Source: a virus. Taken from it: DNA of 30,420 nucleotides. The translations under genes were made by a program, and so were the position numbers. The notes below the pieces were generated by a model. The model was not told the DNA's origin and made no database searches. It saw nothing but the letters and a program-made list of their open reading frames with translations. Below are positions 2,699 through 5,219 of this stretch, one piece after another (positions within the stretch are counted from its first letter, which is position 1; every line of letters begins with the position of its first letter). The stretch is from positions 1 to 30,420 of IMG/VR virus record IMGVR_UViG_3300028712_000010. One strand, written 5' to 3'.

Positions 2699-3052
2699 TC
2701 AGGCAGAGACGGCAGCGACGTCGTCTTCGGCAGTGGTCGCTCCGGTAGCCGCAGCTAGCTCAGCCTGGAGCTGGTTGATGCGGGCCTGGATACGGGCTTG
2801 CTCGGCCTGCCTGCGCTCCTCCTTGATGGCAGCTCGCCGCGCCTCGTCCAGGCCGTAGAAGTCCAGCGCCAGCCGGAGCCTGCGCAGTTCGAGCCCGGTC
2901 AGCGTGATGCCATCGAGCTGGCGAGCGATGGCCTTCTCGATATTGACCAGGCTCAGCTCGCGGCGCAGCTCTTTCTCCAGCTCCGGCCGGTCATTTCTGA
3001 CCGCGGCGGAAATCTCGCCTCGGAGGCGACGGGTGACGTCGGGATTCGACAT
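2699..3052 (-). CDS. Coiled-coil hypothetical protein (117 aa)
   Basis: ATG 3052 has AAGGA eight bases upstream. The product is highly charged and mostly helical: an Arg/Glu-rich N-terminal half (RRLRGEISAAVRNDRPELEK) and a coiled-coil-like C-terminal segment with repeated E/R/Q/A heptads (RRQAEQARIQARINQLQAEL), ending in an Ala/acidic tail. Similar small helical proteins occur in actinophage early regions; no function is known to me. It is the first gene downstream of the array hairpin and an AT-richer gap, and lies 60 bases above the primase/helicase, so it is probably cotranscribed with it. Confidence 0.75.
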   Translation of the reverse strand: MSNPDVTRRLRGEISAAVRNDRPELEKELRRELSLVNIEKAIARQLDGITLTGLELRRLRLALDFYGLDEARRAAIKEERRQAEQARIQARINQLQAELAAATGATTAEDDVAAVSA

Positions 3053-3180
3053 GCGACGGGTCCTTCGAGTTTGCAGAAACAGAGCCGTCGTTTGCGTCTT
3101 CGAGCTATCACTTTCTTACACCGTGGAGGAAATATCAAGCGAATAGCTGAAATGGTTTAACTAACTTCCCCAATGCAACA
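3053..3180 (-). promoter_or_regulatory. AT-richer gap, possible early promoter
   Basis: About 130 bases between the array hairpin and the coiled-coil gene have a sharp drop in GC (runs such as TTTAACTAACTT and AAATATC on the plus strand). Since the hairpin at 3181-3208 should stop or slow leftward RNA, a new leftward promoter is expected here to serve the primase genes. A TTGATA hexamer is present on the minus strand, but no -10 box at standard spacing is convincing, so the exact promoter is unresolved. Confidence 0.35.
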
Positions 3181-3208
3181 GGGCGAGCGACCTTTCGGTC
3201 GCCCGCCC
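3181..3208 (-). terminator. GC hairpin with GAAA tetraloop closing array 1
   Basis: Two 12-base arms (3181-3192 and 3197-3208) enclose four bases. Read leftward the loop is GAAA, a stable GNRA tetraloop, and the single imperfect position becomes a G-U pair, so all 12 positions pair in leftward RNA. Read rightward the same position is an A-C mismatch and the loop is UUUC. The structure therefore favours leftward RNA. The following bases (TGTTGCATT) are only moderately U-rich, so it may be a terminator, a stabilising 3' end or a processing boundary. Confidence 0.7.
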
Positions 3209-3527
3209 TGCCCGAGCCTGCCGTGCCGTGACGTGCCTTGCCGAGCCCCGCCACGACGTGCGATGCCACGCCACGCCTCGCCTGCCGTGCCTTGCCGTGC
3301 CACACCGTGCCGAGCTGAGCGCTGCCGGGCCGCGCCGAGCCGAGCCGTGCCTCGCCCTGCCTCGCCTGCCGTGCCTTGCCGAGCGCTGCCATGCCACGCC
3401 ACACGCCGCCGCACCGTGCCTTGCGGAGCCATGCCGAGCCACACCTGCCGTGCCTTGCCGCGCCGCGCCCCGCCTTGCCAAGCCGTGCGCAGCCGAGCCC
3501 TGCCGGGCCTTGCCGGGCCTGCCGTGG
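3209..3527 (-). repeat. Degenerate GGCNN pentamer array 1 (3' UTR or small RNA)
   Basis: On the leftward strand about 60 consecutive pentamers of the form GGCNN start directly after the TAA of the 142-aa gene and run into the GAAA-loop hairpin. The pentamer phase changes by one base only where the 9-mer CACGGCAGG occurs. Its complement lies at 3518-3526, 3444-3452, 3365-3373, 3281-3289 and 3217-3225, giving spacings of 74, 79, 84 and 64 bases, each 5n-1. The composition nearly lacks stop codons, so several frames on both strands are open, but none has a ribosome-binding site or a non-repetitive product. It is most likely non-coding RNA or a DNA element; function unknown. A second copy with the same start and orientation logic lies at 7039-7124. 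Confidence 0.85.
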
Positions 3528-3956
3528 TTAGCTGGCGGCGGCGTACGAGCCGTCGATGATGTCGCCGAACTCGCTCAGGTGCTCCCACTTGCGGCGGAAC
3601 GCCTTCCACTCGCGCTCGCACTGCCGCAACAGCTCGGCCCGATCGACAGGATCGGCCAGCACGGTCTCGACTGGCTTGTAGCCGTGCGCGCCCTCATTGC
3701 TGGCCGTGGTGAGGTTCACGAAGGCGGGCACCTTGCGTTCCGCGCCGTCGGGGTCGGTCTTGTAGACGACCTTCACGCTGCGGATCAGCCGCCGAGCGAC
3801 CTCCTCGCGGTACCGTTCGGCCGCTTCGGCGTCGTCCCAGGGCAGGAACTCGTGCAACGGTGAACCCGGCGGGCGACCCTCCTCGACCACGATCTGGGGT
3901 GTCAGCTCTCCTCGCCGGTTGTAGATGTCCTGCAGCAGCTCACGAAGGTCGCTCAT
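3528..3956 (-). CDS. Conserved actinophage protein, unknown (142 aa)
   Basis: ATG 3956 overlaps the TGA of the upstream gene (ATGA), so the two are translationally coupled. The product has an N-terminal QDIYNRRGELTPQIVVEEGR segment, then PWDDAEAAERYREEVARRLI, a strand-rich middle (SVKVVYKTDPDG, KVPAFVNLTT) and a helical C-terminal part with conserved-looking Trp and Tyr residues (EREWKAFRRKWEHLSEF). From memory, proteins with this pattern are recurrent in actinobacterial phages and prophages, often next to the partner encoded upstream; I know of no assigned function. The pentamer array begins immediately after its stop codon. It may act with the upstream protein and the array RNA, but that is inference. 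Confidence 0.75.
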   Translation of the reverse strand: MSDLRELLQDIYNRRGELTPQIVVEEGRPPGSPLHEFLPWDDAEAAERYREEVARRLIRSVKVVYKTDPDGAERKVPAFVNLTTASNEGAHGYKPVETVLADPVDRAELLRQCEREWKAFRRKWEHLSEFGDIIDGSYAAAS

Positions 3957-4618
3957 GACCGCACCTCCACGTTCTTGGTCAGGTCGATCTTGTAGGTGCC
4001 GTAGTCGCCCTTGCGCTCAGGACGCCACTCGCCGACCCCGACTCCCATGCCCCCGGCGTCGATCAACGAGAGCAGCGACTCCAGCGTCAGCGACGACTTC
4101 ACGAAGGTCACCTCCAGTACCGCCGACCACTCGTTGAAGAGCGGACGGTAGCGGAGATCGTGCCCGCTGCCGACACCCACGACCGCCTCGAACATCTGCG
4201 GGCTGCCCTCGATCCTGGTCAGCAGCTGACCGTCCTCGGCCGGTTCCCCGGCGAAGAACATCATCTGCCGCAGGCTGGTCATGGTGACCTTCTTGTCGTA
4301 GTACCTCGCGCCGCCGATGGTGGCCTGCTTGAACGCCACCGAGGGCACGCCGAAGCCGCCGTCGCTCTTGAGCCGGTAGAACGCCGCCTCGTACTCGGCG
4401 TCGGGGTTCTTCGCCGACCGCATGGTCGAGCGTCCCTGCATCGCGTCGAGCATCGCCTTCTTGGCCTTCTCCGGGAAGCGGTTCACGATCAGCGGGGCTG
4501 TGCCGATGATCGGAACCAGTGCCGTCTCGGCGGCGACCCGCTCGATCTGCATCGGGGCGTCCTTGCCGCCTCCGGTCGGTTCTTCAGGTGGGGGTGTTCC
4601 TTTCGGTGCAGTCGTCAT
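3953..4618 (-). CDS. Conserved phage protein with RAMP/Cas7-like glycine loop
   Basis: ATG 4618 is preferred to longer forms because GGAAGG lies eight bases upstream and the extension is Arg-rich shadow sequence. After a Pro/Gly-rich linker of about 20 residues the 221-aa product has ETALVPIIGTAPLIVNRF, a Lys-rich EKAKKAMLDAMQGR segment, GVPSVAFKQATIG and the strand pattern RYRPLFNEWSAVLEVTF. It ends with GGMGVGVGEWRPERKGDYG. A small ferredoxin-like domain ending in such a glycine-rich loop resembles RAMP/Cas7-type RNA-binding folds; a single-strand annealing protein is another reading. Both are inference from motif shape. The family is common in phages without a known role. It sits between a small helical protein and the 142-aa partner, with the array downstream. 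Confidence 0.75.
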   Translation of the reverse strand: MTTAPKGTPPPEEPTGGGKDAPMQIERVAAETALVPIIGTAPLIVNRFPEKAKKAMLDAMQGRSTMRSAKNPDAEYEAAFYRLKSDGGFGVPSVAFKQATIGGARYYDKKVTMTSLRQMMFFAGEPAEDGQLLTRIEGSPQMFEAVVGVGSGHDLRYRPLFNEWSAVLEVTFVKSSLTLESLLSLIDAGGMGVGVGEWRPERKGDYGTYKIDLTKNVEVRS

Positions 4619-4622
4619 CCGA

Positions 4623-4973
4623 CTAGCCTTCCTTTTCAGCCACCCCGGAGCCTCTCTCCGGGGTGTCGCTTGTGGCCCCCGTGGTCCCCCCGTTGTCCTG
4701 CTCTTGCTCCTCCGCGCGCTTGCGTGCCTGGGTCGCCAGTCGCTTCGCAGCGACCGCGACGTAGTGGGCACGCCGAGCCTCAGCAACGAGCCGATCGCGC
4801 TCCTCCTCGGGCAGCACCCGGTCCGGGTCCACCTCGTCGACGAAGCGCTGCTCCAGCGCGGCTCGTGCCGCAGCCGTCGCCTCCACTCGCTCCGTCAGAG
4901 TGCGCATCCGGCGCCAGCGTGCCTGGGCGGCGACCTGGGCTCCGTGCGACCGCTCTGCGGGGGTGAGTGGCAT
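4623..4973 (-). CDS. Conserved helical actinophage protein (116 aa)
   Basis: This is the first gene of the leftward early operon. ATG 4973 (MPLTPAERSHGAQVAAQARW) fits the usual family N-terminus better than an upstream TTG at 5009, although neither has a clear ribosome-binding site, so the mRNA may be leaderless or nearly so. The product is almost entirely helical and contains RFVDEVDPDRVLPEEERDRL followed by ARRAHYVAVAAKRLATQARK, a pattern I recognise from many small proteins of actinobacterial phages, prophages and plasmids. Function is unknown. The C-terminus is a low-complexity Glu/Gly/Thr tail. It ends four bases before the start of the RAMP-like gene, so the two are cotranscribed. Confidence 0.75.
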   Translation of the reverse strand: MPLTPAERSHGAQVAAQARWRRMRTLTERVEATAAARAALEQRFVDEVDPDRVLPEEERDRLVAEARRAHYVAVAAKRLATQARKRAEEQEQDNGGTTGATSDTPERGSGVAEKEG

Positions 4974-5112
4974 GTCTGGATCGTGCGCGCAAAATGGTCG
5001 GGTAATCAAGAGGATCTGGCTGCTGAAATCGTGTTGTGCACTGTAATCACCTGCATTTACGCCTGCTGATGAAACGGTGTTGTATTCACAAATCCCAGGC
5101 TCAAGAAAAGGT

Positions 5113-5141
5113 TTGTTAATCGCACTGAAACAGGTTATTGT
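5113..5141 (+). promoter_or_regulatory. Sigma70-type promoter for the 5220-7032 operon
   Basis: TTGTTA (5113-5118) and TATTGT (5136-5141) are separated by exactly 17 bases, matching the vegetative consensus at four of six and four of six positions. Transcription would start near 5148, about 70 bases above the ParB-like start codon. Confidence 0.6.
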
Positions 5142-5149
5142 TCGCGAAC
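5140..5149. promoter_or_regulatory. Perfect palindrome GTTCGCGAAC, candidate operator
   Basis: The 10-base perfect palindrome overlaps the end of the predicted -10 box and the expected transcription start, an ideal place for a repressor dimer to block RNA polymerase. The binding protein is not identified; the ParB-like product encoded just downstream is a possible candidate for autoregulation. Confidence 0.45.
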
Positions 5150-5155
5150 GAAAGC

Positions 5156-5189
5156 GGCCCCGCCCGGAGCGGTAACTCCGAACGGGGCC
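5156..5189 (+). promoter_or_regulatory. Bulged leader hairpin
   Basis: GGCCCCG (5156-5162) pairs with CGGGGCC (5183-5189), and inside it GGAG (5166-5169) pairs with CTCC (5176-5179) around a CGGTAA loop, with symmetric three-base internal bulges. It lies in the 5' leader of the ParB-like mRNA and could be an RNA stability element, attenuator or protein-binding site. Few T residues follow, so a simple terminator is unlikely. Confidence 0.5.
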
Positions 5190-5199
5190 TTGCCACCTA

Positions 5200-5215
5200 G
5201 GACTACAAGGAGTCC
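5200..5215 (+). promoter_or_regulatory. Hairpin holding the ParB-like Shine-Dalgarno
   Basis: GGACT (5200-5204) is complementary to AGTCC (5211-5215), and the Shine-Dalgarno AAGGAG (5207-5212) lies in the loop and right arm, seven bases before ATG 5220. Folding would partly hide the ribosome-binding site. The stem has only five pairs, so the effect may be modest. Confidence 0.45.
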
Positions 5216-5219
5216 CAGA

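What the first reader, a model, noticed from the sequence alone, without database searches (positions are those of the whole stretch)
3528..4973. Conserved unknown trio with a RAMP/Cas7-like protein above the array
Three tightly coupled genes (helical 116 aa, 221 aa with GGMGVGVGEWRP, 142 aa) form the head of the early operon and end exactly at the array. The glycine-rich loop near the C-terminus of the 221-aa protein resembles RNA-binding RAMP proteins. A phage RNP made of this protein, its partner and the array RNA is a testable new system; a single-strand annealing recombination module is the main alternative.
Basis: inference. Interest (0 to 1): 0.72.

Follow-up and report, generated by a model that had tools for sequence, protein, structure and literature searches.

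The report
Phage VIPR system with guide arrays
This bacterial-virus locus encodes a small Cas7-like protein, a partner protein and RNA guides built from five-letter repeats, which makes it a VIPR system, a recently described kind of RNA-guided weapon that viruses probably use against rival viruses.

Summary
The 221-aa protein is a RAMP: it matches the solved SUSP1 Vipr protein by sequence (E=5.1e-8), and its AlphaFold2 model (pLDDT 89.8) matches Csm3/Cas7 subunits (Foldseek 7e-7, VIA Z 11.4). The adjoining 'array' is a set of VIPR guide RNAs: GGY/NN pentamers, four vrRNAs at 3219-3519 (-) and a fifth at 7046-7115 (+). VIPR was described in a 2026 preprint (PMC13142463), so the kind is known.

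The 'trio' is a pair. The 142-aa partner, a predicted winged-helix protein, is found in 89 of 96 vipr loci; the 116-aa protein in 1 of 96. Arrays lie within 1.5 kb of vipr in 89 of 95 loci.

My additions: guides lie head to tail, separated by a 4-nt 'GGCA' phase slip; whole guides come and go between mycobacteriophages with identical vipr genes; under the published 1-nt skip rule, and no other skip, guides hit other loci's vipr genes and near-match genes beside their own array. No target was found for the window's guides; the fifth may be aimed at a rival integrase (suggestive only).

The parts
3953..4618 (-). vipr: 221-aa RAMP (Cas7-fold) protein
   Evidence: PDB 36pp_D SUSP1 Vipr E=5.1e-8, profile 9.1e-11; AF2 pLDDT 89.8; Foldseek and VIA best rows CRISPR RAMPs; phrog_4652
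3528..3956 (-). 142-aa partner, candidate Vap: predicted winged helix plus long C-terminal helix
   Evidence: in 89 of 96 vipr loci; phrog_15946 in 41 of 41 homologues scanned; AF2 pLDDT 91.6; VIA rows mostly winged-helix, Z up to 5.7, weak
3446..3519 (-). vrRNA v1, 14 GGYNN units plus GGCA
3367..3445 (-). vrRNA v2, 15 units plus GGCA
3283..3366 (-). vrRNA v3, 16 units plus GGCA
3219..3282 (-). vrRNA v4, 12 units plus GGCA (end cut by eye; the script ran on to 3203)
3177..3212 (-). stable 16-bp hairpin right after the array, probable terminator or 3' cap
   Evidence: minimum free energy -33.9 kcal/mol for 3160-3215; no T run, so not listed by the terminator scan
7046..7115 (+). vrRNA v5, orphan guide of 14 units at the end of the divergent operon that carries the superinfection-exclusion-like lipoprotein gene
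7118..7157 (+). hairpin after v5
   Evidence: inverted repeat I17; -48.5 kcal/mol for 7105-7170
7477..7518 (-). near-match of v5 in the window's own integrase gene, 19 of 28, skip base at codon position 3; a lead to a rival integrase as target
   Evidence: suggestive only
4623..4973 (-). 116-aa helical ORF, neighbour only; not part of the system
   Evidence: found in 1 of 96 loci, the window itself

Best explanation
The locus is a VIPR (Viral Interference Programmable Repeat) system of a temperate phage with a probably actinobacterial host. SHOWN HERE by computation: the 221-aa protein is a Vipr/RAMP of Cas7 fold; a 142-aa predicted winged-helix protein is its constant genetic partner; the adjacent DNA encodes head-to-tail guides of GGY/NN pentamers separated by a 4-nt GGCA phase slip; a fifth guide sits beside the integrase. 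INFERRED from the characterised SUSP1 and P. fulva systems: several Vipr subunits coat one vrRNA, each gripping a GGY, and the NN pairs read double-stranded DNA with one skipped base per step (usually a codon wobble base), so that the complex blocks transcription of genes in competing phages or prophages; the partner probably helps DNA binding. INFERRED from guide statistics in relatives: many guides are aimed at a rival's copy of the VIPR locus and the genes next to it.
For: Sequence match to solved Vipr; RAMP fold; partner in 89 of 96 loci; array within 1.5 kb in 89 of 95 loci, 109 of 110 arrays on vipr's strand, GGY 1.62/1.28/0.94 bits against NN 0.06/0.01 bits over 8655 units; 12-16 units per guide, within the published 9-16; matches to vipr genes: 5 of 726 guides at -log10P>=8 with skip 1, shuffle mean 0.15, maximum 2; own-locus near-matches within 1 kb of array or vipr: 13 against shuffle mean 2.13, maximum 6, skip 1 only; guide gain and loss between phages with identical vipr.
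Against: No RNA, binding or repression data for this locus. No target found for the window's guides (v1-v4 searched only in held loci). The plain count of guides with a match of at least 0.85 anywhere in the held DNA is not raised (79 against 81 in shuffles). The guides lack the individual tails seen in SUSP1, and a hairpin after the array is not general. The 142-aa partner does not match SUSP1's neighbour gene by BLAST.
Confidence: 0.93

Rival explanations
1. Single-strand annealing recombination module (RecT/Redbeta/Sak-like) with a repeat-rich recombination site or origin.
For: Position in an early operon near a D5-type primase/helicase gene; repeats beside the genes.
Against: RAMP fold with Csm3 rows on top and sequence match to Vipr; Gordonia phage UmaThurman carries separate RecE and RecT genes besides its vipr pair; the variable NN positions follow a targeting code.
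Confidence: 0.02
2. The RNP is a regulator of the phage's own genes: guides near-match neighbouring genes because they repress them in cis.
For: Guides near-match genes beside their own array; v5 near-matches the window's own integrase.
Against: Own-locus matches are imperfect (v5 19/28; best in the family 18/20), whereas matches to vipr genes of other loci reach 16/16, 19/20 and 25/28, as expected for guides aimed at divergent alleles. How many mismatches are tolerated is not known.
Confidence: 0.08
3. The vipr pair is real but this window's tracts are decayed or unexpressed; units with CGC, GTC or AGC in place of GGY are mutations.
For: Several off-consensus units in the window (CGCAC, CGTGT, AGCTC, GTCGT); no sigma-70-like promoter found in 2900-7300.
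Against: The vipr and partner ORFs are intact and coupled; the family as a whole has T at the second position in 11% of 8655 units, so off-consensus units are common in arrays; the promoter scan does not cover actinobacterial promoters well.
Confidence: 0.07

Closest known systems
VIPR of Escherichia phage SUSP1 (type II; PMC13142463; PDB 36pp)
   Same: RAMP protein homologous by sequence, a small partner gene directly downstream, GGY/NN guide tracts on the same strand
   Different: Vipr about 22-25% identical; partner gene not homologous by BLAST; SUSP1 has single guides of about 100 nt with structured tails (main text), here head-to-tail guides with 4-nt phase slips and no general tail
Unannotated VIPR loci in Gordonia phages (UmaThurman, Pipp, Ecliptus, ODay) and mycobacteriophages (Saal and others)
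   Same: Same vipr-partner pair; arrays adjacent in the three read, UmaThurman, Ecliptus and Saal
   Different: Array may lie before vipr or between vipr and the partner; all annotated hypothetical protein; Vipr 42-58% identical
Csm3/Cas7 RAMPs of type III CRISPR-Cas
   Same: Fold (Z 11.4 over 154-159 residues); backbone protein on a guide RNA (inferred)
   Different: Guide is a GGY/NN tract, not a spacer between CRISPR repeats; no Rfam family, CRISPR repeats included, matches the window

Membership tests
VIPR | Vipr protein: RAMP with single RRM-like core and glycine-rich loop | tested here: met
   36pp_D E=5.1e-8, profile 9.1e-11; RAMP fold
VIPR | Tandem YNNGG (GGY/NN) repeats with conserved GGY and variable NN beside vipr | tested here: met
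   window; family 89 of 95 loci, bits per position
VIPR | 9-16 repeat units per vrRNA | tested here: met
   14, 15, 16, 12 and 14 units; v4 end cut by eye
VIPR | Accessory vap gene next to vipr | tested here: inconclusive
   constant partner in 89 of 96 loci, winged-helix-like; identity with any of vap1-6 not known, no BLAST match to SUSP1's neighbour gene
VIPR | Conserved 3' tail after the repeat tract | tested here: inconclusive
   hairpins after both window tracts but no general hairpin: mean z 0.12, 9 of 102 arrays below -2; sequence tails not modelled
VIPR | 1-nt skip recognition of DNA targets | tested here: inconclusive
   family: supported, skip 1 only; window: no target found
VIPR | vrRNA expressed and bound by Vipr | not testable with these tools
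   needs RNA sequencing and pull-down
CRISPR-Cas class 1 | CRISPR array of conserved repeats and unique spacers | tested here: not met
   the tract has a 5-nt period with three conserved positions; no Rfam match in the window
CRISPR-Cas class 1 | Cas7-type RAMP fold | tested here: met
   a shared fold, not membership
Single-strand annealing proteins (RecT, Redbeta, Sak) | Annealase fold or family match | tested here: inconclusive
   no Pfam match for the 221-aa protein; CRISPR RAMP rows among the best Foldseek rows; absence from a list does not exclude

The most novel reading that the evidence does not exclude
In this branch of VIPR the guide arrays behave like a memory of allelic warfare: whole guides are gained and lost between otherwise near-identical phages, they are aimed at divergent copies of the VIPR locus itself and the genes beside it in rival phages, and orphan guides (here v5, beside the superinfection-exclusion lipoprotein and the integrase) are aimed at a rival's integrase, so that the phage defends both its niche locus and its attachment site. 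How guides are renewed, with no known adaptation gene in the published account, would be an open question.
Probability: 0.4. Interest if true: 0.82.

Novelty: new member of a known kind. Interest (0 to 1): 0.6.

Why it matters
It places a months-old class of RNA-guided system in phages with established laboratory hosts (Mycobacterium smegmatis, Gordonia terrae), where the genes are still labelled hypothetical. Arrays of up to about 65 guides, and near-identical phages with different guides, make the open question of how such a guide array is renewed directly testable.

Tried and rejected
Targets of the window's guides: all five searched in 96 held loci; v5 also in viral contigs with exact 9- and 8-unit patterns and in 396 actinobacterial genomes with up to 3 mismatches. 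Nothing convincing; the seven 8-unit hits match 18-21 of 28 bases, i.e. about chance outside the seed, and I recognised no integrase among them. v1-v4 were not searched in collections.

A guide shared by mycobacteriophages (11 units): 2 exact 9-unit hits in viral contigs that do not extend (19 and 18 of 22), 0 of 249 genomes at up to 2 mismatches.

Close relatives of the window phage through integrase and primase: none in viral contigs; the portal found 11 distant ones (24-28%). The host is inferred as actinobacterial from weak matches only: terminase to Arthrobacter phages, portal mostly to Microbacterium and Mycobacterium phages, and the vipr pair itself. The three genomes searched with the integrase gave nothing.

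A common structured tail after arrays: rejected. The two strong skip-3 matches into vipr are probably the array of L006, whose vipr span overlaps it by 109 bases; I did not trace them one by one.

Wobble check with a crude gene finder: 10 of 13 near-array skip-1 hits have the skip at codon position 3, against 27 of 64 in shuffles; beyond 1 kb 7 of 12 against 100 of 189, no clear difference.

In one search the number of distinct guides that hit a vipr gene at 0.86 or better was not raised (6, against 2, 2, 7 and 8 in shuffles); only the strength of the best matches was.

Related loci are not independent: several are near-identical phages (L005, L075, L077, L080, L081; L061 and L062; L086 and L087). 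Dropped as duplicates before counting: L001 (the window), L021, L043, L047, L072; of these L043, L047 and L072 were still among the 974 guides. L100 was left out by a slip in my filter; it has an array too.

Full report
WHAT IS THERE. The start codon of the 142-aa ORF overlaps the stop of the 221-aa ORF (ATGA). A few bases after the 142-aa stop, on the same strand, begins a run of GGYNN pentamers that ends near 3203-3219; its score of 81 compares with at most 8 in ten Markov resamplings of the window. A second, separate run lies at 7046-7115 on the plus strand, after a gene of 64 aa and just before a hairpin and the convergent integrase gene.

THE PROTEIN. The 221-aa protein has no Pfam match and hits a PHROG of unknown function (phrog_4652). 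Against the PDB it matches chain 36pp_D, 'SUSP1 Vipr protein', at E=5.1e-8, and a profile of 39 sequences reaches 9.1e-11. The AlphaFold2 model from those sequences has mean pLDDT 89.8 and pTM 0.81. Foldseek's 50 listed rows are CRISPR effector subunits, best 6xn3_F (Csm complex) at 7.0e-7, and VIA-align gives Z 11.4 to Csm3-type chains over 154-159 residues.

THE KIND OF SYSTEM. The main text of PMC13142463 (preprint; all four parts read; supplement not seen) describes VIPR: a RAMP (Vipr), an accessory protein (Vap) and vrRNAs of 9-16 YNNGG units that read double-stranded DNA through their NN pairs with one skipped base per step, used mostly between phages. A search for 'VIPR' with 'vrRNA' from 2025 on found only this paper in the held library. 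The window fits: the guides have 14, 15, 16 and 12 units (v1-v4) and 14 units (v5) (the end of v4 is my cut by eye).

FAMILY EVIDENCE. I collected 99 loci carrying vipr relatives besides the window's own copy, chosen by the protein and not by the array; after removing duplicates 96 remain, window included. The 142-aa partner is found in 89 of 96 and the 116-aa protein in 1 of 96. Arrays lie within 1.5 kb of vipr in 89 of 95 loci, and 109 of 110 such arrays are on vipr's strand. Over 8655 units the three GGY positions carry 1.62, 1.28 and 0.94 bits and the two N positions 0.06 and 0.01 bits. Guides follow each other without a spacer: 841 of 974 guides end in a 4-nt step, and the 4-nt unit is GGCA in 799 of 1102 cases. 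Some arrays are huge: 65 and 62 guides in L029 and L076. This differs from SUSP1, where single guides lie apart, and may correspond to the 'staggered arrays with overlapping vrRNAs' that the preprint mentions in one sentence (fig. S18, not seen).

GUIDE TURNOVER. Six mycobacteriophage loci of one kind have vipr genes that are 91-100% identical, yet their arrays differ. In 4 of 15 pairs the vipr genes are 100% identical (L005/L080, L005/L081, L080/L081, L075/L077), and these pairs differ by gain or loss of whole guides, by small changes inside a guide, or both. No adaptation gene was looked for.

THE CODE. With shuffled unit order as control, I asked which skip length gives matches. Five of 726 guides match a vipr gene of another locus at -log10P>=8 with skip 1 (25/28, 19/20, 16/16, 17/18, 18/20), against a mean of 0.15 and a maximum of 2 in 20 shuffles, and the ten best have the skip base at codon position 3. 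Near-matches within a guide's own locus are enriched for skip 1 only, chiefly within 1 kb of the array or vipr: at -log10P>=5.5, 13 against a shuffle mean of 2.13 (maximum 6 in 30 shuffles); beyond 1 kb, 12 against 6.3 (maximum 11). Mean excess over shuffles is z=2.95 for skip 1 and below zero for skips 0, 2 and 3 (604 guides). Against this, the plain count of guides with a match of 0.85 or better anywhere in the held DNA is not raised (79 against 81). My reading is that guides are aimed at divergent copies of the VIPR locus and its neighbours in rivals, so that they near-match the owner's own copy. [quoted passage not shown] the enrichment next to the guide's own array is my addition.

THE WINDOW'S GUIDES. 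No target was found (v1-v4 only in held loci). v5 near-matches the window's own integrase in frame (19/28, skip at codon position 3). One of 500 unit-order shuffles does as well within that gene, but 3 of 30 do somewhere in the window, and 40 gene-guide combinations were examined, so this is only suggestive. It fits the idea of a guide against a rival's integrase, placed at the end of an operon with a superinfection-exclusion-like lipoprotein gene (phrog_4980).

THE PARTNER. The 142-aa model (pLDDT 91.6) is three helices and short strands followed by a long helix. Foldseek finds nothing significant (best E 0.59); VIA-align's rows are mostly winged-helix proteins at Z 4-5.7, which is weak. A DNA-binding helper fits the preprint's description of vap genes in types II, VI and VII, but homology to SUSP1's neighbour gene was tested by BLAST and not found. 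The type of this system is therefore not assigned.

VERDICT. A member of the VIPR family in a phage of a probably actinobacterial host, with a guide layout and guide statistics that add to the published account. Not a new kind of system; not a trio; nothing points to an annealase.

Noticed in passing
L003:6634-6957 (Gordonia phage UmaThurman gp40): An annotated 'hypothetical protein' that lies almost wholly on the guide array (6626-6936), so it is probably not a protein.
   Followed up: partly
L029:8676-12649 and L076:8711-12182: Giant guide arrays of 3.5-4 kb, 65 and 62 guides, between vipr and the partner gene.
   Followed up: partly
window 6349-6807: Lipoprotein with Ltp domains (phrog_4980, superinfection exclusion), in the operon that ends with the orphan guide v5.
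   Followed up: partly
window 7162-8025: The integrase's best match in the phage collection is Streptomyces phage Mulchroom, a 14.8-kb record whose host field names another phage, MulchMansion; possibly a satellite.
   Followed up: no
L056:1086-1394 and L066:16194-16248: Guide tracts about 7 kb away from the vipr gene, like v5 in the window: orphan guides may be common.
   Followed up: no
all arrays held: The second position of the GGY core is T in 11% of 8655 units, so the consensus is looser (GKY) than the published GGY; whether GTY units sit at fixed places in a guide was not tested.
   Followed up: no
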